A stretch of 64,000 bases of DNA from Sphingobium fuliginis. Lineage in GTDB: Bacteria; Pseudomonadota; Alphaproteobacteria; Sphingomonadales; Sphingomonadaceae. Shown piece after piece: positions 10,882 to 56,401 of the stretch. The notes beneath the pieces are model-generated. The model was not told where the DNA came from. It searched no databases and worked only from the letters and a program-made list of their open reading frames with translations. The stretch is from positions 620,001-684,000 of the forward strand of contig NZ_SEON01000002.1 of assembly GCF_004152845.1 (NCBI RefSeq), in the 5' to 3' direction. The stretch's first letter is position 1; every line of letters begins with the position of its first letter. The position numbers and the translations under genes are program-made.

Positions 10882-12762
10882 ATGTTCCACCCCATGCCCG
10901 CGATCCGCCCCGAACGGTCGATCTTCCTGCTGCTGTTGGCCTTGCTGATCGTCGGGTTGGCGTTCGGCAGCACCTATTGGCTCTATGCGGTGCAGCAGCG
11001 GGTCAACATCTGGGTTCAGCACACATTGCGCGTCGAGAACCAGCTTTCCGCGCTGCTGCTCCACGCGCAGGAGGCCGAAAGCGCGCAGCGCGGCTTCATG
11101 CTGACGCGCAAGGATTCCTTCCTCGGCCCCTATGAGGTCTTCCGCGGCCAGTGGCGGCAGGAACTGGCCGCCCTGCGCATGGAGGTGCGCGACAATCCCC
11201 CGCAGGCCCGATCGGTGGAGGAGCTGGAGGAGTTGCTCGACGACCGCCTGTTCCTGATGCGCACGGGCATAGAAAGGCGGCGGCGGGGCGAGGTCGTGCC
11301 GGCGGGCGACTTCGATGCGGGCATGGTGACGATGGCCCGCATCCGCGCGCTGGTCGCGACGATGCGGGCGCGGGAAGCGCAGCTGCTGAAGGGCCGGACC
11401 GCCAATGACAACCGCCTCAGCACCATGGTTTCGGCCGGGCTTGCGGTGTCCGCCGTGCTGATCACCCTGTTGGGCGCGGTGGCGCTGCGCACCGCCTATC
11501 GCCGCGTGGCCGAGGCAACCGAAAGCCAGCAGGCGCTGGCCGACATCAACCGGCGCCTGATGAGCGAGGCGCGGGACCGTGAAACGGCCGAGGGGCAATT
11601 GCGCCAGATGCAGAAGATGGAATCGATCGGCCAACTGACCGGCGGCATCGCCCATGACTTCAACAATATGCTCGCCATCGTCATCGGCTCGCTGGACATC
11701 GTCCGGCGGCGGCTGGCGCCGGACGCCGACACCCGGGTCGTCAGGGGCATCGACAATGCGACCGAAGGGGCTCAGCGCGCCGCCCAGCTTACCGCCCGGC
11801 TGCTCGCCTTTTCCCGCCAGCAGCCGCTCGACCCGCAGCCGACCGACGTCAACAAGCTGGTCGGCGGCATGTCGGAACTGCTGCGCCGCACCATCGGGGA
11901 GAGCATCCGGGTGGAAACCGTGCTGGCAGGCGGGCTGTGGCGGGCCAGCATCGACGCCAGCCAGCTCGAATCGGCCATCATCAACCTCTGCGTCAATTCG
12001 CGCGACGCCATGCCCATGGGCGGCCGGCTGACGATCGAGACGGCCAATGCCCATCTCGACGACGCCTATGCCGCGGTCCATGGCGATGTCGCGGCCGGCC
12101 AATATGTGATGGTATCCGTCACCGACAGCGGCACCGGCATGCCGCCCGAGGTGGTGGAGCGCGCCTTCGACCCCTTCTTCACGACCAAGGGCGTGGGCAA
12201 GGGCACCGGCCTCGGCCTCAGCCAGGTCTTCGGCTTCATCAAGCAGTCGCGCGGCCATGTGAAAATCTATTCCGAACCGGGCGAGGGCACGGTCATCAAG
12301 ATCTACCTGCCGCGCCATTACGGGCCTGAACCGGCCGCCGGCACCCTGATGGCGGCGCCTGCCGAACTGCCCCGCGCGCGGGGCGAAGAGATCATCCTGG
12401 TGGTGGAGGACGAGGAACGCGTCCGGCACATGTCCGTCGATTCGCTGCGCGAGCTGGGCTACACCATCGTCCAGGCCTCCGACGGCGAACAGGCGCTGGC
12501 GATGCTGGCGATCCAGCCACGCATCGACATGCTGTTCACCGACGTCGTCATGCCCGGCATCAACGGGCGCGTGCTGGCCGACCGGGCGCGGGCAAGCCAT
12601 CCCGGCCTCAAGATCCTCTACACCACGGGCTACACCCGCAACGCCATCGTCCACAACGGCATGCTCGACCCCGGGGTCTCCTTCCTCGCCAAGCCCTTCA
12701 CCCTCGGACAGCTGGCGGTAAAGGTCCGCCAGGTTCTGGACGCCGATCCCGCGCAAGCCTGA
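10882..12762 (+). CDS. Hybrid sensor histidine kinase with CHASE3 domain and C-terminal receiver
   Basis: This 626-residue signalling protein has TM1 at about 13-34. An extracytoplasmic CHASE3-like sensory domain (about 35-180, including [17 protein letters not shown]) follows, then TM2 at about 182-205. The coiled linker leads to a HisKA domain (phospho-His in [10 protein letters not shown], about residue 258) and an HATPase domain ([21 protein letters not shown]). A REC domain has its phospho-acceptor Asp at about 554 (LFTDVVMPG). The open frame extends upstream to 10735 through the repeat element. I chose ATG 10882 because the upstream 49 codons are repeat-derived and the first helix begins just after it. 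Its response-regulator partner is not adjacent. Confidence 0.92.
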
Positions 12763-12812
12763 CTGATCGAGATTATGGACAGGGGAGATCGGGGAACATA
12801 TGATGAACAATC

Positions 12813-14060
12813 ATGGCCACCCTCTCCACCCGACAGAAGCTGGAAATCCTCGCCGACGCCGCCAAATATGACGCATCCTGCGCGTCGTCCGGCACGGCGA
12901 AGCGCGATAGCGCGTCGGGGCGGAAGGGCGGCATCGGCTCGACCGAGGGGATGGGCATCTGCCATGCCTATGCACCCGATGGTCGCTGCATTTCGCTGCT
13001 CAAGATCCTGCTGACCAACAGCTGCATCTTCGACTGCCATTATTGTATCAACCGCCGGTCCAGCGACGTGCGGCGCGCCCGCTTCACCGTGCGGGAAGTG
13101 GTCGACCTGACGCTCAGCTTCTACCGCCGCAACTATATTGAGGGGCTGTTCCTTTCCTCCGGCATCATCCGTTCGTCCGATTACACGATGGAACAGATGG
13201 TGGCGGTGACCCGGAGCTTGCGGGAAGAGCATGATTTCCGCGGCTATATCCACCTCAAGACCATTCCCGACGCCGATCCGGAACTGGCGCATCAGGCGGG
13301 CCTTTATGCCGACCGGCTGTCGATCAACGTCGAACTGCCCACCGAGCAGGGCCTGCGCAGTCTGGCGCCGGAGAAGGACAAGGACCGGATCGAAAGCGCC
13401 ATGGCGGGGATGCGCGACGCCATGGAGGACGGGTCGGACGCCAGCCGCCGCTACACCCATGCGCCGCGCTTCGCCCCGGCCGGCCAGTCCACCCAGATGA
13501 TCGTCGGCGCGGACCAGGCGGACGACCGCGCCATCATCCGGCGCGCGAGTTCGCTCTACAGCCGGCACAGGCTGCGCCGCGTCTATTACAGCGCCTTCTC
13601 GCCCATCCCCTCGCCCAGCAGCGTGCTGCCCTTGAAGCGTCCGCCGCTGATGCGCGAGCATCGGCTCTACCAATCCGACTGGATGATGCGCTTCTACGGC
13701 TATTCGGCGCAGGAACTGGAAAGCGCCACCGATCCCGTCACCGGCTGCCTGCCGCTCGACATCGATCCCAAGCTCGCCTGGGCGCTGCGGCATCGGGATT
13801 CCTTTCCGGTCGACGTCAACCGCGCCCCGCGCGAAGCGTTGCTGCGGGTGCCGGGGCTGGGCGTGAAGGCCGTGGACCGGATCGTCGCCAGCCGCCGCCA
13901 TCGCCGGCTCCGGCTGGACGATGTCGCGCGGCTGACGCAGAGCATCGCCAAGCTGCGCCCCTTCCTGGTCGCGGCCGACTGGCGGCCGGTGCATCTGGCC
14001 GACCGGCTGACCCTGCCCATGGCGCCGCCGCCCGCGTCGCAATATGAGCTTTTTCCGTGA
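12813..14060 (+). CDS. Putative DNA modification/repair radical SAM protein with helix-hairpin-helix
   Basis: This 415-residue radical-SAM protein has the 4Fe-4S/SAM motif C71-x3-C75-x2-C78 (SCIFDCHYC). A C-terminal helix-hairpin-helix (VPGLGVKAVDRIVASRRH, about 345-365) implies DNA binding. It matches the family usually named putative DNA modification/repair radical SAM protein, whose genes commonly neighbour DUF4130 and UdgX-type uracil-DNA-glycosylase genes. Exactly that pairing occurs here: the DUF4130-UdgX fusion lies 1 kb downstream on the same strand. The biochemical reaction is unknown. It starts 50 bp after the histidine kinase gene. Confidence 0.9.
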   Translation: MATLSTRQKLEILADAAKYDASCASSGTAKRDSASGRKGGIGSTEGMGICHAYAPDGRCISLLKILLTNSCIFDCHYCINRRSSDVRRARFTVREVVDLTLSFYRRNYIEGLFLSSGIIRSSDYTMEQMVAVTRSLREEHDFRGYIHLKTIPDADPELAHQAGLYADRLSINVELPTEQGLRSLAPEKDKDRIESAMAGMRDAMEDGSDASRRYTHAPRFAPAGQSTQMIVGADQADDRAIIRRASSLYSRHRLRRVYYSAFSPIPSPSSVLPLKRPPLMREHRLYQSDWMMRFYGYSAQELESATDPVTGCLPLDIDPKLAWALRHRDSFPVDVNRAPREALLRVPGLGVKAVDRIVASRRHRRLRLDDVARLTQSIAKLRPFLVAADWRPVHLADRLTLPMAPPPASQYELFP

Positions 14061-14189
14061 GTCGCGCGCATTTTGCCGTTGATCGGACGGGCGGTTCATG
14101 TTTTCCTTGTCCGACGCAAGGAAAGGGCCCGATTTTTGGCGACGAAGTGGAACGATGGCGCAACCCGCCGCACGGGCCATGCCCAGCGG

Positions 14190-14486
14190 ATGAGCACCCA
14201 TCTGGCCGCCGCTCTCGTCATCTTCTGCCTGCTTCAGATCTTCATCGTCGCCAGGATGGGCGGATCGTTGCTGCTGCATCTCGGCATCATCGTGGCGATC
14301 GGCGGCTTTGCCGTCGCGGCGCGGGGACTGGAACGCCGCTGGGAGTTGCTCGACCGCAGCGGCCTGCCCGCGCACAGCCTCGATCTTCGCTTCCGCCGCG
14401 ATCTGGTGCAGCTCTGGTCCGCCAGCATCGTCGGCGGACTGCTCTGGATTCCCGTCGCGATCATCTTTCGCGCACTGTTCGGCTGA
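14190..14486 (+). CDS. Small membrane protein of unknown function
   Basis: From ATG 14190 this is a 98-residue protein with two adjacent hydrophobic segments at about 5-36 (AAALVIFCLLQIFIVA and LLLHLGIIVAIGGFAVA). A basic loop follows, then a third hydrophobic segment at the C-terminus (SIVGGLLWIPVAIIFRALF). I do not recognise a family. It lies between the radical-SAM gene and the hemerythrin gene on the same strand. The frame is open back to 14073, but that extension is Arg-rich and has no support. Confidence 0.6.
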   Translation: MSTHLAAALVIFCLLQIFIVARMGGSLLLHLGIIVAIGGFAVAARGLERRWELLDRSGLPAHSLDLRFRRDLVQLWSASIVGGLLWIPVAIIFRALFG

Positions 14487-14539
14487 ACCCAAAGCCGCGG
14501 TCCATCGTTGTTCCTTCTGCAAGAGAAGGAGCATGCCCC

Positions 14540-15010
14540 ATGGCCGACAGCAGCATTTTCGACCGGTTGAAGCAGGATCATGACGCCCATCGGCAGCTAT
14601 TCGACAAGATGGCCGATGCGAAGGACGAGCCGGATCGGCTGGAAAAGCTGTTCGAACAGTTCCGGGTGGAGGTAACCGCCCATGCCGCGGCGGAGGAAGA
14701 AACGCTCTACGCCACCATGCTGGCGCGGCCCGACCTGCGCGAAGATGCCCAGCACAGCGTGTCGGAGCATAAGGAGATCGACGATTATCTGGAGGAACTG
14801 GAAGACCTCCCCTTCAACGGCGATGAATGGAACCGCGTCTTCGCCCAGCTCAAGAAGCGCTACCTCCACCATATCGACGAGGAAGAGGAGGAGATGTTCC
14901 CCGACGCGGCGAAGGAACTGACCGCAGAGGAGGAGCAGAAGCTGGCGGCGCTGTTCGCCCGGCGCAAGCCGGCCGAACTGCAACGCGCCGAAGCGGAGAC
15001 GAATGACTGA
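14540..15010 (+). CDS. Hemerythrin HHE-domain protein
   Basis: This 156-residue all-helical protein has the repeated His/Glu iron ligands of hemerythrins: LKQDHDAHRQ, VTAHAAAEEETLY, SEHKEIDDYLEEL and RYLHHIDEEEEEMFP. Such cytoplasmic di-iron proteins bind O2, NO or protect against oxidants and serve in iron homeostasis. The start ATG 14540 has GAGAAGGAG upstream; the frame is open further upstream without coding support. It is located inside the repair cassette, about 100 bp before the DUF4130-UdgX gene, which could indicate a redox or iron link, but that is inference. Confidence 0.9.
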   Translation: MADSSIFDRLKQDHDAHRQLFDKMADAKDEPDRLEKLFEQFRVEVTAHAAAEEETLYATMLARPDLREDAQHSVSEHKEIDDYLEELEDLPFNGDEWNRVFAQLKKRYLHHIDEEEEEMFPDAAKELTAEEEQKLAALFARRKPAELQRAEAETND

Positions 15011-15109
15011 AGGCGCTCCTTCCATGTTCCCGCGAAGCCGGGAACCCGGCCCAGATACCGGCCCCGATACCGGCCCGGCGCGCCACGCCCAGGGCAGCCA
15101 TGCCGAACC

Positions 15110-16507
15110 ATGTATCGCGCAAGGCTGAACGGCCCGGATGATTTCGACGGCTGGCGCGACGCGGCCCGCGCCTTGACGCTGGCGGGCATCGCGCCCGCCG
15201 ACATCGTCTGGCAGGACGGCGAGGGCGCTGGCGACCTCTTCGCCGCCGACGAACCGCTTCCGGTCGCAAGCGAAGCCGCCTTCTCCGTCCCGCGCGCCTT
15301 TGTCGAGCTGGCGGAAACGGCGATCCTGCACCGCGATCCGGAACGTTTCGCCCTGCTCTACGCCTTGCTCTCCCGGTTGCGCGACCGCCCCGCCAGCCTG
15401 GAAGATCGCGCCGATCCACTGGTCCGGCGCGTGGAATCGCTGGCCAAGGCCGTGCGGCGCGACATGCACAAGATGCGCGCCTTCGTCCGCTTCCGCGAAC
15501 TGGCCGATGCGCAGGGGCCGCGCTTCGTCGCCTGGTTCGAACCGGACCATCATATCGTCCGCGCCAATGCCGGATTCTTCGTGCGGCGCTTCGCCTCGAT
15601 GCGCTGGTCGATCCTGACGCCCGAACTCAGCATCCATTGGGACGGCGATGCGTTGACCGAGGGACCGGGCGCCACGCGCAGGGATGCGCCGGGCGACGAT
15701 CCCGTCGAGGACATCTGGAAGGGCTATTATGCGGCGATCTTCAATCCGGCGCGGCTCAAGGTCGGCGCGATGCTGTCCGAAATGCCCCGGAAATATTGGC
15801 GCAACCTGCCAGAGGCCGCGCTCATTCCCGAACTGGTGGCGGGCGCCCAGACAAGGGAGGCGGCCATGATCGCGACCCCACCCAAACCCGCCGCCCGCCG
15901 GGGGAACGCCGCCACGGCCTGGAGCGCGCTGCGCGAGGAGGCGATGGGCTGCACCCGCTGCCCGCTCTACCGCGACACGACGCAGACGGTGTTCGGGGAG
16001 GGGCCGGTCGATGCGCCGCTGATGTTCATCGGGGAACAGCCGGGCGATCAGGAGGATCTGGCCGGGCGCCCCTTCGTCGGGCCGGCCGGGCAATTGTTCG
16101 ACCGCGCGCTGGAAGAGGCCGGGATCGACCGCCGGCGCGCCTACATCACCAACGCCGTCAAGCATTTCAAGCATGAGCGGCGGGGCAAGCGGCGTATACA
16201 CCAGACGCCCGAAACGCCGGAAATCCAGGCCTGCCGCTGGTGGCTGACGCAGGAGCTGGAGCTGGTCCGCCCCCGGATCATCGTCGCGCTGGGCGCCACG
16301 GCGGGGCGCGCGCTGCTGGGGAAGGCGGTGACGATCAGCCGGGTCCGTGGCGCGCCACTGGCGCTGGAGGGCGGCGCGCAGGGCTGGATCACGGTGCATC
16401 CCAGCTATTTGCTGCGGGTGCCCGAAGAGACGCGCAAGGCCGAGGAGAGAAAGCGCTTCGTAGAGGAGTTGCGGGAGATTGGAGAACGGGTGAAGGCGCT
16501 GGTCTAG
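15110..16507 (+). CDS. udgX: DUF4130-UdgX fusion: uracil-DNA binding/glycosylase superfamily protein
   Basis: This 465-residue protein has two parts. Residues about 1-245 match DUF4130, the DNA-metabolism domain found beside the radical-SAM repair protein. Residues about 265-465 are a UdgX-type uracil-DNA glycosylase domain with CTRCPLYRD, motif A GEQPGDQED (308-316), NAVKHFK, the R-loop KRRIH (His364) and HPSYLLR. In mycobacterial UdgX the KRRIH histidine forms a covalent bond with the abasic product, trapping uracil-containing DNA. All those residues are kept here, so suicide-type repair activity is plausible. The stop codon TAG coincides with the end of a palindromic repeat. Confidence 0.93.
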   Translation: MYRARLNGPDDFDGWRDAARALTLAGIAPADIVWQDGEGAGDLFAADEPLPVASEAAFSVPRAFVELAETAILHRDPERFALLYALLSRLRDRPASLEDRADPLVRRVESLAKAVRRDMHKMRAFVRFRELADAQGPRFVAWFEPDHHIVRANAGFFVRRFASMRWSILTPELSIHWDGDALTEGPGATRRDAPGDDPVEDIWKGYYAAIFNPARLKVGAMLSEMPRKYWRNLPEAALIPELVAGAQTREAAMIATPPKPAARRGNAATAWSALREEAMGCTRCPLYRDTTQTVFGEGPVDAPLMFIGEQPGDQEDLAGRPFVGPAGQLFDRALEEAGIDRRRAYITNAVKHFKHERRGKRRIHQTPETPEIQACRWWLTQELELVRPRIIVALGATAGRALLGKAVTISRVRGAPLALEGGAQGWITVHPSYLLRVPEETRKAEERKRFVEELREIGERVKALV

Positions 16508-16596
16508 AGCATCGTGCGCAAAAGTGGGAACCGGTTTTGCGCGGACCCATTATGTTCCTGCGAAGGCAGGAGCAGGATGATGCAAGACGTTAGAGC
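16505..16596. repeat. Palindromic repeat bounded by TAGAGC and GCTCTA
   Basis: The left end TAGAGC begins at the UdgX stop. A strong hairpin follows (GCGCAAAA ... TTTTGCGC, about 16515-16542), then a second region with complementary CCTGC/GCAGG arms. The right end is a TAGAGC in direct orientation at 16591-16596, overlapping the stop of the minus-strand DUF1489 gene. The converging genes therefore share this small element as their 3' ends, and it probably acts as a terminator. Confidence 0.6.
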
Positions 16597-16988
16597 AAGC
16601 CCAGCTTCGACAACTCCCCCAGCAACCGCGTCGGCATGGCGTCCAGATCGTTCGCCTCGCCCTCGCCCAGATCGGGCGGCGCGTCCTTGCCCTCCAGATA
16701 GCGCCAGCCCTGATGCGCCCGCTTGGGCAATGCGCGCACCGGGATCAGCCGGGGCTCCAGCCTGATCCAGTAACGGCCCTGCCCGGTCTCCTGAAAGCCC
16801 AGCAGAGGACTGCGCCCGACAAGCTGATGCCCATGAATCCAGAAGAGCGAACCGCCCGTCAGTTCATCGACCCGCTTGGGCAGATAGCGCGTCGTCAGCC
16901 GCGCCTCCTGCGCATGGCTTTCCAGCCAGGCGCGAAGCGTCGCGGGACTTTCGCTCCGAAAGGCGATCTTGGTCAGGTGAAGCGGCAT
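16590..16988 (-). CDS. DUF1489 family protein
   Basis: This 132-residue cytoplasmic protein has family-typical segments TTRYLPKRVDEL, GSLFWIHGHQLVGRSPLLGF and PRAHQGWRYL-like KRAHQGWRYLEGKDAPPDL. DUF1489 is restricted mainly to alphaproteobacteria and has no assigned function. The start at 16988 (MPLHLTKIAF) was chosen because the family begins there; the upstream 19 codons look non-coding. It lies 28 bp downstream of mgtE on the same strand and may be cotranscribed. Its TAA overlaps the right end of the repeat at 16505-16596. Confidence 0.88.
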   Translation of the reverse strand: MPLHLTKIAFRSESPATLRAWLESHAQEARLTTRYLPKRVDELTGGSLFWIHGHQLVGRSPLLGFQETGQGRYWIRLEPRLIPVRALPKRAHQGWRYLEGKDAPPDLGEGEANDLDAMPTRLLGELSKLGLL

Positions 16989-53493: not shown

Positions 53494-55332
53494 TTAAGCC
53501 TCTGCCGGTGCTGGCCCTACTTCATCACCCGCTTGCGGCGCTACCTTGTTGAGATACGCCTCGATTTTGTCGAGTGCGGGACCGAACGCTACAAAGTCGT
53601 CGCCCGTCCCATGCTCGCACATCCTCTGGCATAGTTCAGCCTTGCGAAGAGTTTTTCGAGTGAGAACATCCCCATTCGGCTTCCGGCTTTCAATCGCCTC
53701 ATAATCAGCCTCGGTAATGGATGCTTCCGCCAGGAGATTTTCGATTCCTGCCCGCACTTTCGAGTTTCCGTCATTCGTCGGCATGCTTATTACTGAAACA
53801 ATGCCATGGTCCGCATCGGCCTTATTCACATCGTTATCGTATAAAAGAAGGATCGGTCTATTCGAGAGCTTAGGATTTGCGCGAAGCACCGCGAGGGTAT
53901 GGTCAAGTGCCGCCTTGCCGGTATGAAACCCTTGACCGCTTTCGTCCTTAGCGCCGATCCACTGAACATCACAGCGTTCAAGCAGTTCATTGCGACCGAG
54001 CAATTGAGCAGCGCGACGAATGTAAGGTGTGTCGGTTTCCCCTTCGACGAATATGATCGGAAGGCCTGTCTGTGCTGTCTCTGAAAGCAGCTTCTCATTG
54101 AATGCTTCGGTCGCCGTCAGAGCCTGCATCGCTTTGCCAAACTCAGAGTAGGTTTCAGCAGTGACGGAATGCCCGCCGGGCATTTCGACGAGCTGGAAAC
54201 CGTCGGTACCGAACTCCTTCTCCATTCCCAGCACGAACAACGGTGAATGGCTTGAAATTATGAATTGAACGCGAGGAAATAGCTTAATCAGCGAGGGTAA
54301 AATTCGATGTTGAAGATCGACATGTATGTGCGAGTCGATCTCATCGACAATGCAGATTCCTTCAATCGACGCGAGATCGAGCGCATGACCACTGCTTGAT
54401 TGATCCCCATACCGCAGAAGCGTGCCAAAAAGACCCAACAGAATCGACTGTCCTCCCGAAAGGGCATCGAGGTTGGGCAGGAAAAGCTCATCTCCTCGCG
54501 CGACTGCGAGCTTATCGGGCGACTTTCTCCCCAACCAAACAAATCTGACATCTTCGTCGTCAAGTACGCGACGTAGAACCAAGTTGCATTGGGCGAGTAC
54601 CAATTCCGACATCAGTGTTGCGTTCACGTCGCCCCTGACTTGAAGCTGCAAGGCTTGTTCCGGGCCGACTGCCAAACCGATGTGCGCTCTGGATTCAAGG
54701 ATAACGGAAATCAGCCATTGCTTTATTTGGTCAAGGCTCCGCTCAACGAAAATAGGTTTCCGCAAACGTTTAGCGAATGCGGCAAACACATCGAACTCAG
54801 TCTCCGGCAACGATTCCCTGTTGAGCCAGTACGGTATTTCGGACCGGCTGGACGGGAAGTAGGCATAAACCCCGTCCCCAAAGATGCGGCGTGATACTTC
54901 GTCCCCGACAGGAAACTCCTTCACTGAGCCTTCCGTCGGCCAGTTGACAGCCCCAGCGAGATCAGCGGACACCCTTTCCCTCGCTTGAACTGGATCGACG
55001 GTGCCAGCCTTCTCTTTGTAAATAAGGCTTTCACCGCCATGCTCGAACCGCAAAAGCGTGAATCCGCCAAGTGTGCCCACTGTGGTCGTTCGACCGCCGA
55101 CCACCCTGAACCAAGCTCGGCCAGCACCTCTGGCAGGAAGCACGTTCTCATAGTGCACAGCAGCGGCCTCAAAGAGCGCATCAGTGATGAGAGACAAGAT
55201 ATTCGTCTTTCCGCCACCATTGGCTCCAACGAGCACAATAGGTCTCGGGGCGCCCTCGCTGCTGAACGCAAGATCTAGGTCGATCCGCCGGAGCGGACCA
55301 CTGTTCTCGATGACTGCCTGTTTCAGATACAT
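53494..55332 (-). CDS. OLD-family-like ATPase with C-terminal TOPRIM nuclease domain
   Basis: This protein of about 612 residues has an ABC/RecF-like ATPase: Walker A VGANGGGKT (about 36-43), signature ALSGGQSILLG (about 291), Walker B CIVDEIDSHIH (about 328) and SSHSPLF. A C-terminal TOPRIM-like domain has IIFVEGETD (Glu about 430) and LLLYDNDVNKAD (Asp about 499/501). This is the OLD (overcoming lysogenisation defect) nuclease layout. The sequence is visibly AT-richer, with different codon use from its neighbours. It is a lone gene with no UvrD-type helicase. The frame is open back to 55401. A phage-defence role is inferred. Confidence 0.85.
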   Translation of the reverse strand: MYLKQAVIENSGPLRRIDLDLAFSSEGAPRPIVLVGANGGGKTNILSLITDALFEAAAVHYENVLPARGAGRAWFRVVGGRTTTVGTLGGFTLLRFEHGGESLIYKEKAGTVDPVQARERVSADLAGAVNWPTEGSVKEFPVGDEVSRRIFGDGVYAYFPSSRSEIPYWLNRESLPETEFDVFAAFAKRLRKPIFVERSLDQIKQWLISVILESRAHIGLAVGPEQALQLQVRGDVNATLMSELVLAQCNLVLRRVLDDEDVRFVWLGRKSPDKLAVARGDELFLPNLDALSGGQSILLGLFGTLLRYGDQSSSGHALDLASIEGICIVDEIDSHIHVDLQHRILPSLIKLFPRVQFIISSHSPLFVLGMEKEFGTDGFQLVEMPGGHSVTAETYSEFGKAMQALTATEAFNEKLLSETAQTGLPIIFVEGETDTPYIRRAAQLLGRNELLERCDVQWIGAKDESGQGFHTGKAALDHTLAVLRANPKLSNRPILLLYDNDVNKADADHGIVSVISMPTNDGNSKVRAGIENLLAEASITEADYEAIESRKPNGDVLTRKTLRKAELCQRMCEHGTGDDFVAFGPALDKIEAYLNKVAPQAGDEVGPAPAEA

Positions 55333-55507
55333 ACTGCAATTAAAGCTACTATTTAGGATGGGGCAAGAGCGACAGTAGATATCGTCCTCTGGAGGGGCCA
55401 TTTTGCGCCGCGAGCAAACACTCGGGACGCTGCTGATAGAGGGTGCATCTCGAAACGCTGAATGACCGGATTAGGCGCAAAGCTGCCTATCAAACCTAGC
55501 ATGAAAC

Positions 55508-55540
55508 AAAAAAGGGGCCGCCGGGCAGGCGACCCCTTTT
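55508..55540. terminator. Intrinsic terminator of the cold-shock gene
   Basis: AAAAGGGGCCGCC (55510-55522) pairs with GGCGACCCCTTTT (55528-55540), with one mismatch. On the minus strand the hairpin is followed by a T-run, correctly placed after the cold-shock gene ending at 55571. Confidence 0.85.
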
Positions 55541-55570
55541 ATCCTCTCCCTAAAGCGGGCAGGCTGTTCT

Positions 55571-56401
55571 TTAGTCGGCCTTCGTCTGAAGGTTGACGGC
55601 CGCATATTTGCCGCGGCGGTCTACTTCCAGTTCGAAGTCGAGGCGGTCGCCTTCATTGAGGGCGCTCATGCCGGCGCGTTCTACGGCGCTGATGTGCACG
55701 AATGCGTCGGGCTGGCCGTCGTCGCGCTGGATGAAGCCGAAGCCCTTCATGGCGTTGAAGAACTTGACCGTGCCGCTGGCGCGTTCGCCGGTGAGCTGGC
55801 GCTGCGGGCCGCGGTCGCCGCCGCCCGGACGATCGCCGAAGCCGCCGGCGCGGGGTTCGCGGGGGGCGCGTTCGGTGACGGGGAGCGGTTCGCCCTCGAT
55901 CTTGAGATCGGTGGCCGACACCTTGCCGCCGCGATCCACCAGGGTGAAGCCGAGCGGCTGGCCTTCGGCGAGGCCCGTCAGGCCCGCCTGCTCGACGGCG
56001 CTGATGTGGACGAACACGTCTTCGCCGCCATCGTCGCGGACGATGAAGCCGAAGCCCTTCTGCCCGTTGAAGAATTTGACCACGCCGGTGCCTTCACCGA
56101 CGACCTGCGCGGGCATGCCGCGGCCACCGCCGCCGAAACCGCCGCCGCCGCCGCCGCGACCACCGCCAAAGCCGCCGCCACCGCCGCCGCCGCCGAAACC
56201 GCCACGGTCGCCGCCGAAGCCACCACCGCCGCCGCCACCGAAGCGGTCGCCGCCGCCGAAGCCACCACGATCACCACCGAAACCGCCGCGGTCGAACCCA
56301 CCGCCGAAGCCGCCACGGCCGCCTTCATAGAAACTGTCGTCGCCGAAACTGTCGCGCTTGTCCTTGCCGCGCCCGCCGCGGCGACCTCTATCAAAACTCA
56401 T
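55571..56401 (-). CDS. RGG-rich protein with two cold-shock domains
   Basis: The 276-residue protein has a long Gly/Arg/Asp-Phe-rich N-terminal segment (RGGFGGGFDRGGFGG) of about 115 residues. Two cold-shock domains follow, with RNP motifs GVVKFFNGQKGFGFIVRDDG / VFVHISAVEQ and GTVKFFNAMKGFGFIQRDDG / AFVHISAVER. Double-CSD proteins occur in alphaproteobacteria as RNA-binding chaperones or regulators; the RGG-like head suggests extra RNA binding or phase separation. ATG 56401 begins MSFDRGRRGG. A terminator follows at 55508-55540. Confidence 0.92.
   Translation of the reverse strand: MSFDRGRRGGRGKDKRDSFGDDSFYEGGRGGFGGGFDRGGFGGDRGGFGGGDRFGGGGGGGFGGDRGGFGGGGGGGGFGGGRGGGGGGFGGGGRGMPAQVVGEGTGVVKFFNGQKGFGFIVRDDGGEDVFVHISAVEQAGLTGLAEGQPLGFTLVDRGGKVSATDLKIEGEPLPVTERAPREPRAGGFGDRPGGGDRGPQRQLTGERASGTVKFFNAMKGFGFIQRDDGQPDAFVHISAVERAGMSALNEGDRLDFELEVDRRGKYAAVNLQTKAD

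What the first reader, a model, noticed from the sequence alone, without database searches (positions are those of the whole stretch)
12813..16507. Radical-SAM/HhH protein with a DUF4130-UdgX fusion: a covalent uracil-DNA repair cassette
The two DNA-repair genes are separated only by a small membrane protein and a hemerythrin, all on one strand. The glycosylase half keeps motif A GEQPGDQED, the KRRIH R-loop and HPSYLLR, which in mycobacterial UdgX allow irreversible histidine capture of uracil DNA. It is fused to DUF4130, the frequent genomic partner of the neighbouring radical-SAM protein. A combined pathway (radical-SAM chemistry plus a suicide uracil binder) has not been described biochemically, as far as I know.
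Basis: partly seen in the sequence, partly recalled or inferred. Interest (0 to 1): 0.8.

Follow-up and report, generated by a model that had tools for sequence, protein, structure and literature searches.

The report
SOS-inducible radical-SAM and UdgX repair operon
This stretch of DNA carries what looks like a damage-inducible bacterial DNA-repair operon of a family already known by name; its two halves, an uncharacterised radical-chemistry pair and a protein that probably glues itself to uracil in DNA, are separable in evolution, so they are probably two repair functions sharing one switch, not one pathway.

Summary
In detail: 12813-14060 is a TIGR03916 radical-SAM protein, 15110-16507 a DUF4130-UdgX fusion with motif A, KRRIH (His364) and HPSYLLR intact. 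The association is not new: NCBIfam names it, a 2013 paper mentions it, and a 2021 paper reports SOS control of what I take to be the same operon.
Such a box precedes this gene in 36 of 36 loci of the window's class, an E. coli-type box in 6 of 8 others.
The obligate unit is radical-SAM plus DUF4130 (the same 31 of 200 genomes of the phylum); UdgX is optional (23 of those 31) and absent from 50 of 50 other genomes with the radical-SAM gene. In six genomes UdgX stands at the cassette's site without the partners. I read two separable repair functions under one SOS switch. Covalent capture by UdgX is likely, untested; the radical-SAM/DUF4130 chemistry is unknown. A known kind, with useful natural experiments.

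The parts
12776..12804 (+). sigma-70-like promoter TGGACA-17-TATGAT; its -10 lies inside the LexA box; a transcript from it would start about at the ATG (leaderless, inferred)
   Evidence: only promoter-like site found in 12600-16700 (shuffles mean 0.4); sequence
12794..12808 (+). LexA (SOS) box GAACATATGATGAAC
   Evidence: only GAACN7GAAC or GTTCN7GTTC in the 64 kb window; such a box in 36 of 36 loci of the class; GAACRTANNNNGAAC 13 sites in the genome, reversed control 0
12813..14060 (+). radical-SAM protein with C-terminal HhH-like part (TIGR03916); CX3CX2C at C71/C75/C78 plus three further invariant Cys C23, C50, C59
14190..14486 (+). small hydrophobic protein, 98 aa, no family match over cut-off; no relative in 132 fetched loci of the cassette or of solo UdgX
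14540..15010 (+). hemerythrin HHE protein, 156 aa; also in 6 of 132 fetched loci (five with the cassette, one with solo UdgX)
15110..15817 (+). DUF4130 domain (TIGR03915) of the fusion protein, residues 1-236
15818..16504 (+). UdgX domain (TIGR03914) of the fusion protein, residues 237-465; His364 corresponds to MsmUdgX H109

Best explanation
This is most likely a LexA-repressed, SOS-inducible repair operon built from two separable modules. The core module is the radical-SAM/HhH-like enzyme plus DUF4130, an obligate pair probably acting on damaged DNA by radical chemistry (substrate unknown). UdgX is an added module, fused to DUF4130 in Pseudomonadota, which on induction should excise uracil and bond its His364 to the resulting abasic sugar, shielding or marking the site while error-prone synthesis proceeds. 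LexA would sit on the -10 of a promoter whose transcript starts about at the ATG; cleavage of LexA would release it. Shown by sequence: gene content, motifs, conserved boxes, constant pairing of radical-SAM with DUF4130, separability from UdgX. Inferred: LexA binding, one transcript through the inserted genes, leaderless start, DNA as the radical-SAM substrate, cross-linking by this protein, the cell-level role.
For: Family matches. LexA box in 36 of 36 loci of the class within -100..+15 of the gene (expected 0.0045 each) and CTGTATAN5ACAG just upstream in 6 of 8 loci of other classes, nowhere else in those loci. In the own genome GAACRTANNNNGAAC has 13 sites against 0 for its reversed control; five proteins next to such sites were scanned: two ImuA-like (NF033429, below cut-off), one SRAP, one PA0069-family radical-SAM, one endonuclease/exonuclease/phosphatase; lexA has GTTCTCCATCCGTTC just upstream of its start. 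Published SOS control of COG1573-COG4277. The same 24 of 118 and the same 31 of 200 genomes hold radical-SAM and DUF4130 over cut-off. Separability. A His stands at the R-loop place in 45 of 45 UdgX domains.
Against: No expression or biochemical data. Solo UdgX has a box in only 1 of 9 loci, so the SOS link of UdgX is through the cassette. L208 has a divergent loop and motif B HPAAVLR; L209's UdgX is split over two frames. L179 and L187 show neither box. Physical fusion in most loci of the class argues for some coupling of the modules. Of the 80 named loci, five show no DUF4130: L242, L283, L286, and L213 and L290, which lie near contig ends. Most of the 13 genome sites were not tied to a scanned gene.
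Confidence: 0.65

Rival explanations
1. One integrated pathway: UdgX captures uracil-DNA and hands the covalent adduct to DUF4130 and the radical-SAM enzyme, which process or release it.
For: Fusion of UdgX to DUF4130 and shared LexA control; 23 of 29 UdgX genomes of the phylum set also hold the pair.
Against: The pair lacks UdgX in 8 of 31 genomes of that set; 50 of 50 other genomes with the radical-SAM gene lack UdgX at E 1e-15; UdgX stands alone at the cassette's site in six genomes with its loop His kept.
Confidence: 0.15
2. The core pair is a spore-photoproduct-lyase-like direct-reversal enzyme for UV lesions, with UdgX a passenger.
For: A 2013 figure legend calls the partner of DUF4130 SplB-like; SOS box.
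Against: The best structural matches of the model are HydE (Z 17.7), lipoyl synthase (17.0) and biotin synthase (16.7); no entry titled spore photoproduct lyase is among the 50 rows shown, which does not exclude it. The genome has a separate boxed radical-SAM gene of the PA0069 family.
Confidence: 0.12
3. The fused UdgX no longer cross-links and serves only to bind uracil or abasic DNA and recruit DUF4130.
For: Fusion context; NCBIfam itself calls the family a uracil-DNA binding protein.
Against: All the residues that the two papers name as important in MsmUdgX are present: E309, Q310, D313, D316, F322, N348, K351, R362, H364, H430, R436.
Confidence: 0.07

Closest known systems
NCBIfam trio TIGR03916 rSAM_link_UDG / TIGR03915 SAM_7_link_chp / TIGR03914 UdgX family
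   Same: All three domains far above cut-off, usual order and strand; several plasmid records carry the names 'putative DNA modification/repair radical SAM protein' and 'UdgX family uracil-DNA binding protein' together.
   Different: A hemerythrin and a small hydrophobic gene lie between the usually adjacent genes.
Mycobacterium smegmatis UdgX (6ajo, 6io9 and others)
   Same: UdgX half, E 2e-52; the named key residues are kept.
   Different: The UdgX chains in the PDB are 205-229 residues, with no DUF4130; here the domain is fused and its operon has a LexA box.
COG1573-COG4277 SOS operon of Bacteroidetes, Verrucomicrobia and Alphaproteobacteria (PMC8565304, passages seen)
   Same: Two-gene operon under LexA motifs. 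That COG4277 is this radical-SAM family, and so that the operons are the same, is from recall.
   Different: The paper calls the partner a uracil-DNA glycosylase. In the 80 named loci read here (mostly Bacteroidota) no UdgX domain was found; where a partner was found (75) it is DUF4130. The paper's own species list was not compared.
Lipoyl synthase, MiaB, HydE (radical-SAM enzymes)
   Same: Fold of the radical-SAM part; LipA rows align from about residue 4, so including the N-terminal part. Three extra N-terminal Cys recall the auxiliary cluster of LipA and MiaB (from recall).
   Different: Spacing of the extra Cys, the HhH-like tail, the operon.
RecJ/Cdc45 DHH-DHHA1 superfamily
   Same: Most of the 50 rows for the DUF4130 model are of this superfamily (my count 47, partly from recall of what the entries are), best Z 7.9.
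   Different: Z under 8, within the tool's stated background; Foldseek E 0.026 at best; no profile-profile match to RecJ; DHH-type aspartates not conserved.

Membership tests
UdgX (TIGR03914) | Score over the curated cut-off | tested here: met
   326 bits against 190
UdgX (TIGR03914) | Motif A GEQPG with Gln in place of Ala/Gly of family 4 | tested here: met
   Residues 308-312, Q310; definition
UdgX (TIGR03914) | R-loop with R107 and H109 equivalents, the signature residues of UdgX | tested here: met
   KRRIH 360-364, so R362 and H364; definition; a His is kept at this place in 45 of 45 domains compared
UdgX (TIGR03914) | Motif B HPS(S/A)(L/V)(L/V)R | tested here: met
   HPSYLLR 430-436; Tyr instead of Ser/Ala at the fourth place, so the published pattern is met in 6 of 7 positions
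UdgX (TIGR03914) | Covalent adduct with uracil-DNA through the R-loop His | not testable with these tools
   Needs protein
TIGR03916 radical-SAM | Score over cut-off and CX3CX2C | tested here: met
   564 bits; C71/C75/C78 in 84 of 84 aligned
TIGR03916 radical-SAM | C-terminal HhH DNA-binding motif | tested here: inconclusive
   PF12836 E 4e-4, below Pfam's cut-off; weak ComEA and RuvA matches by profile, E 0.006-0.09
Spore photoproduct lyase (SplB) | Nearest fold among radical-SAM enzymes | tested here: inconclusive
   Not among the 50 rows shown
DHH/DHHA1 phosphoesterases (for DUF4130) | Shared fold | tested here: inconclusive
   Rows at Z 7.9 to 4.5; hhalign probability 0.1 against RecJ
DHH/DHHA1 phosphoesterases (for DUF4130) | Conserved Asp/His metal-binding residues | tested here: not met
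   In 96 sequences the only invariant acidic residue is E235; the other invariant ones are R, F, W, Y, P; H120 is in 92 of 96
LexA/SOS regulon | Operator of the class's type at the promoter | tested here: met
LexA/SOS regulon | Induction by DNA damage through LexA | not testable with these tools
   Reported in print for related operons only

The most novel reading that the evidence does not exclude
The radical-SAM enzyme and DUF4130 form an uncharacterised, widespread SOS repair machine: a radical-SAM enzyme with a second, N-terminal iron-sulfur cluster (C23, C50, C59), which may donate sulfur or electrons as in lipoyl synthase, works on single-stranded DNA held by DUF4130, a catalytically dead RecJ/Cdc45-like clamp. 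In Pseudomonadota it gained a covalent uracil anchor (UdgX) that parks the machine at uracil or abasic sites behind error-prone polymerases.
Probability: 0.1. Interest if true: 0.85.

Novelty: new member of a known kind. Interest (0 to 1): 0.45.

Why it matters
UdgX is used as a laboratory tool, but its natural role is unclear (from recall). Placing it in a LexA-boxed operon whose other two genes can be missing while it stays, and which itself can do without UdgX, gives natural comparisons and laboratory species in which to ask what each half repairs. If the published COG1573-COG4277 operon is this one, it also corrects a reading in print: in the mostly Bacteroidota loci seen here the partner has no UdgX domain, so the conserved SOS function would be the uncharacterised radical-SAM/DUF4130 pair, not uracil excision.

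Tried and rejected
Sequence link of DUF4130 to RecJ: hhalign of 96 DUF4130 against 16 RecJ gave probability 0.1, and a profile search of the PDB gave nothing below E 0.15; I keep the DHH likeness only as a weak structural lead.

Auxiliary cluster in the radical-SAM model: residues 24-49 have pLDDT under 50, so the grouping of C23/C50/C59 could not be judged; coordinates were not on hand.

Chance neighbourhood: rejected. Hemerythrin or the small hydrophobic gene as part of the core: rejected; of 132 fetched loci (L159-L290) the hemerythrin has a relative in 6 and the small protein in 0 at E 1e-3. The hemerythrin's weak hits to RIC (20 bits, cut-off 205) and the PA2171 family (40 bits, cut-off 190) are not membership.

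Papers: in the library searched, I found no paper on the biochemistry of the radical-SAM/DUF4130 pair. Two primary papers, Erill 2016 and Paes da Rocha 2008, are not held; I know them only as cited in PMC8565304. A search for Caulobacter locus tags gave mostly unrelated papers.

Rows left out: the two genome sets hold 50 distinct genomes with the pair over cut-off (24 + 31, five shared); 44 were read as regions (43 fetched and the window); not fetched: G002, G097, G226, G234, G279, G306. For one search, 50 of the 80 named loci were given. For the alignments behind the models, 118 DUF4130 were filtered to 110 and 124 radical-SAM to 92, of which 96 and 84 were aligned. Solo UdgX: nine loci read; L204 shows only a 1 kb match to a cassette locus, L205 and L207 none, so the same-site claim is for L199-L203 and L206 only. 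Loss, not late gain, of the partners is directly seen only in L203, which keeps a DUF4130 stub; in the other five it is inferred, and the number of separate losses is not known.
Full report
WHAT IS THERE. The window encodes, on the + strand, a radical-SAM protein with a C-terminal HhH-like part (12813-14060), a 98-aa hydrophobic protein (likely 14190-14486), a hemerythrin (14540-15010) and a DUF4130-UdgX fusion (15110-16507). NCBIfam gives TIGR03916 at 564 bits, TIGR03915 at 216 and TIGR03914 at 326, all far over cut-off; Pfam agrees for Radical_SAM, DUF4130, UDG and Hemerythrin. The UdgX half matches UdgX chains in the PDB at E 2e-52; a single-sequence search finds nothing for the radical-SAM protein but a weak HhH match, E 0.09. 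The residues named as important in MsmUdgX (abstracts and passages of PMC10359453 and PMC10776899) are all present, by motif position: E309, Q310, D313, D316, F322, N348, K351, R362, H364, H430, R436.

REGULATION. A LexA box GAACATATGATGAAC lies at 12794-12808, the only GAACN7GAAC or GTTCN7GTTC in the 64 kb. It overlaps the -10 of the only sigma-70-like site found in 12600-16700, TGGACA-17-TATGAT at 12776-12804 (shuffles: mean 0.4), and ends four bases before the ATG, so a transcript would be leaderless or nearly so (inferred). Of the 36 loci of the window's class with the radical-SAM gene that I read, 36 have a box within -100..+15 of the estimated gene start; 20 other boxes in 518,894 nt give 0.0045 expected per such stretch. 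In 26 of the 36 the first in-frame start codon after the box lies within 6 bases (starts not verified). Of the 8 loci of other classes, 6 have CTGTATAN5ACAG just upstream and nowhere else in the locus; L179 and L187 have neither box. In the own genome GAACRTANNNNGAAC has 13 sites, its reversed control 0; five proteins next to such sites were scanned: two ImuA-like (NF033429, below cut-off), one SRAP, one PA0069-family radical-SAM protein, one endonuclease/exonuclease/phosphatase-family protein; the rest were not scanned. lexA (170 bits) has GTTCTCCATCCGTTC just upstream of its start. SOS control of a COG1573-COG4277 operon is in print for Bacteroidetes and, by citation there, Verrucomicrobia and Alphaproteobacteria (PMC8565304, passages).

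WHICH PARTS BELONG TOGETHER. In 118 genomes of the order, radical-SAM and DUF4130 are over cut-off in the same 24; UdgX in those 24 plus G056 and G112. In 200 genomes of the phylum, radical-SAM and DUF4130 are over cut-off in the same 31 (a DUF4130 fragment is seen in one more, G187); UdgX in 29, of which 23 are among the 31 and six are not. So 8 of 31 have the pair without UdgX. The two sets share genomes, so their counts must not be added. In 80 named loci from a collection scan that kept the 80 best of a capped list (mostly Bacteroidota, with Moraxellaceae, a Brachymonas and Fibrobacterota), DUF4130 follows on the same strand in 75, within 300 nt of the end of the radical-SAM frame in 67 of them; UdgX is in 0 of 80. 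Without DUF4130 are L242, L283, L286, and L213 and L290, which lie near contig ends. UdgX is absent at E 1e-15 from 50 of 50 of these genomes searched whole. The named control Bacteroides ihuae likewise rings over cut-off for radical-SAM and DUF4130 and not for UdgX, while Caulobacter vibrioides rings for all three. All 96 aligned DUF4130 match Pfam's DUF4130, and the UDG family is not among the families reported (the fused rows had been cut to the DUF4130 part, so this bears on the standalone ones). Other uracil-DNA glycosylase families were not searched for. On a tree of 63 radical-SAM proteins all 36 fused rows lie in one 43-row branch of proteobacterial genomes; the label needs five changes on the best tree, of which well-supported branches force three, as if gained there and lost several times. 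The rooting is not established.

NATURAL SEPARATIONS. Nine solo UdgX loci were read. Four (L201, L202, L203, L206) match the fused locus L188 on both flanks, one (L200) matches L178 and L164 on both flanks, and L199 matches L173 and L175 on the upstream side, where it keeps the hemerythrin. None of these six genomes has radical-SAM or DUF4130 over cut-off elsewhere. In L203 the LexA box is kept and is followed by a 35-residue stub of DUF4130 joined to an intact UdgX, so loss of the partners is directly seen; in the other five it is inferred, and separate events cannot be counted. So UdgX can persist without its partners. The loop His is present in 45 of 45 UdgX domains; L208 has a divergent loop and L209's UdgX is split over two frames. 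Eight of nine solo loci have no box near the gene.

THE UNKNOWN HALF. Six Cys are invariant in 84 radical-SAM sequences: the CX3CX2C triplet and C23, C50, C59, which could bind a second cluster (inference). The model (pLDDT 87) is closest to HydE, lipoyl synthase and biotin synthase (Z 17.7, 17.0, 16.7); residues 24-49 are not modelled reliably. DUF4130 models well (pLDDT 92) but has no clear match: Foldseek E 0.026 at best, VIA Z up to 7.9, with most rows from the RecJ/Cdc45/DHH group; sequence profiles do not support kinship. Its twelve invariant residues are R, F, W, Y, P and one Glu (E235), without a conserved acidic metal site. A nucleic-acid-binding role fits better than a nuclease (inference).

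THE INSERTED GENES. In 5 of 20 fetched sphingomonad loci, and in the window, a hemerythrin lies between the pair; in two of these five more than 2 kb of further sequence is inserted as well. The small hydrophobic protein has no relative in 132 fetched loci. No terminator-like site was found in 12600-16700, but the shuffles gave 2.4 on average, so this says little. A protective or iron-supplying role of the hemerythrin for an oxygen-sensitive enzyme is possible but untested.

KNOWN OR NEW. The family trio, its linkage and its SOS control are known; the window is a new member with an unusual insertion. What I did not find said in the papers I could search is that the partner in the mostly Bacteroidota loci lacks a UdgX domain, that the constant unit is radical-SAM plus DUF4130, and that UdgX stands at the same site without both. 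Related genes occur on plasmids: of 72,556 records 393 match some of the fusion protein at E 1e-30 (144 over at least 80% of it) and 158 the radical-SAM protein at E 1e-40.

VERDICT. Observation confirmed; interpretation partly supported; ordinary as a family, useful as a testable system.

Noticed in passing
window 14540-15010; L164, L173, L174, L175, L178, L199: A hemerythrin gene travels with this cassette in one part of the sphingomonads and stays beside UdgX in L199, where radical-SAM and DUF4130 are missing.
   Followed up: partly
L297 (own genome, C15:269110-269124): A second radical-SAM gene (PA0069 family, 477 bits) in the same genome has the same type of LexA box.
   Followed up: partly
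L298-L301 (own genome, C16 and C17): Two places with paired LexA boxes about 1.15 kb apart; one SRAP gene (L298) and one ImuA-like gene (L301, below cut-off) were scanned there, so the genome may hold several SOS mutagenesis cassettes.
   Followed up: no
L209 (G030) UdgX: UdgX is split over two frames behind an intact radical-SAM and DUF4130; true frameshift or sequencing error not decided.
   Followed up: no
window 54001-56000: A stretch of lower G+C (0.573 against about 0.65); a crude ORF pick shows no likely gene between 53417 and 55571.
   Followed up: no
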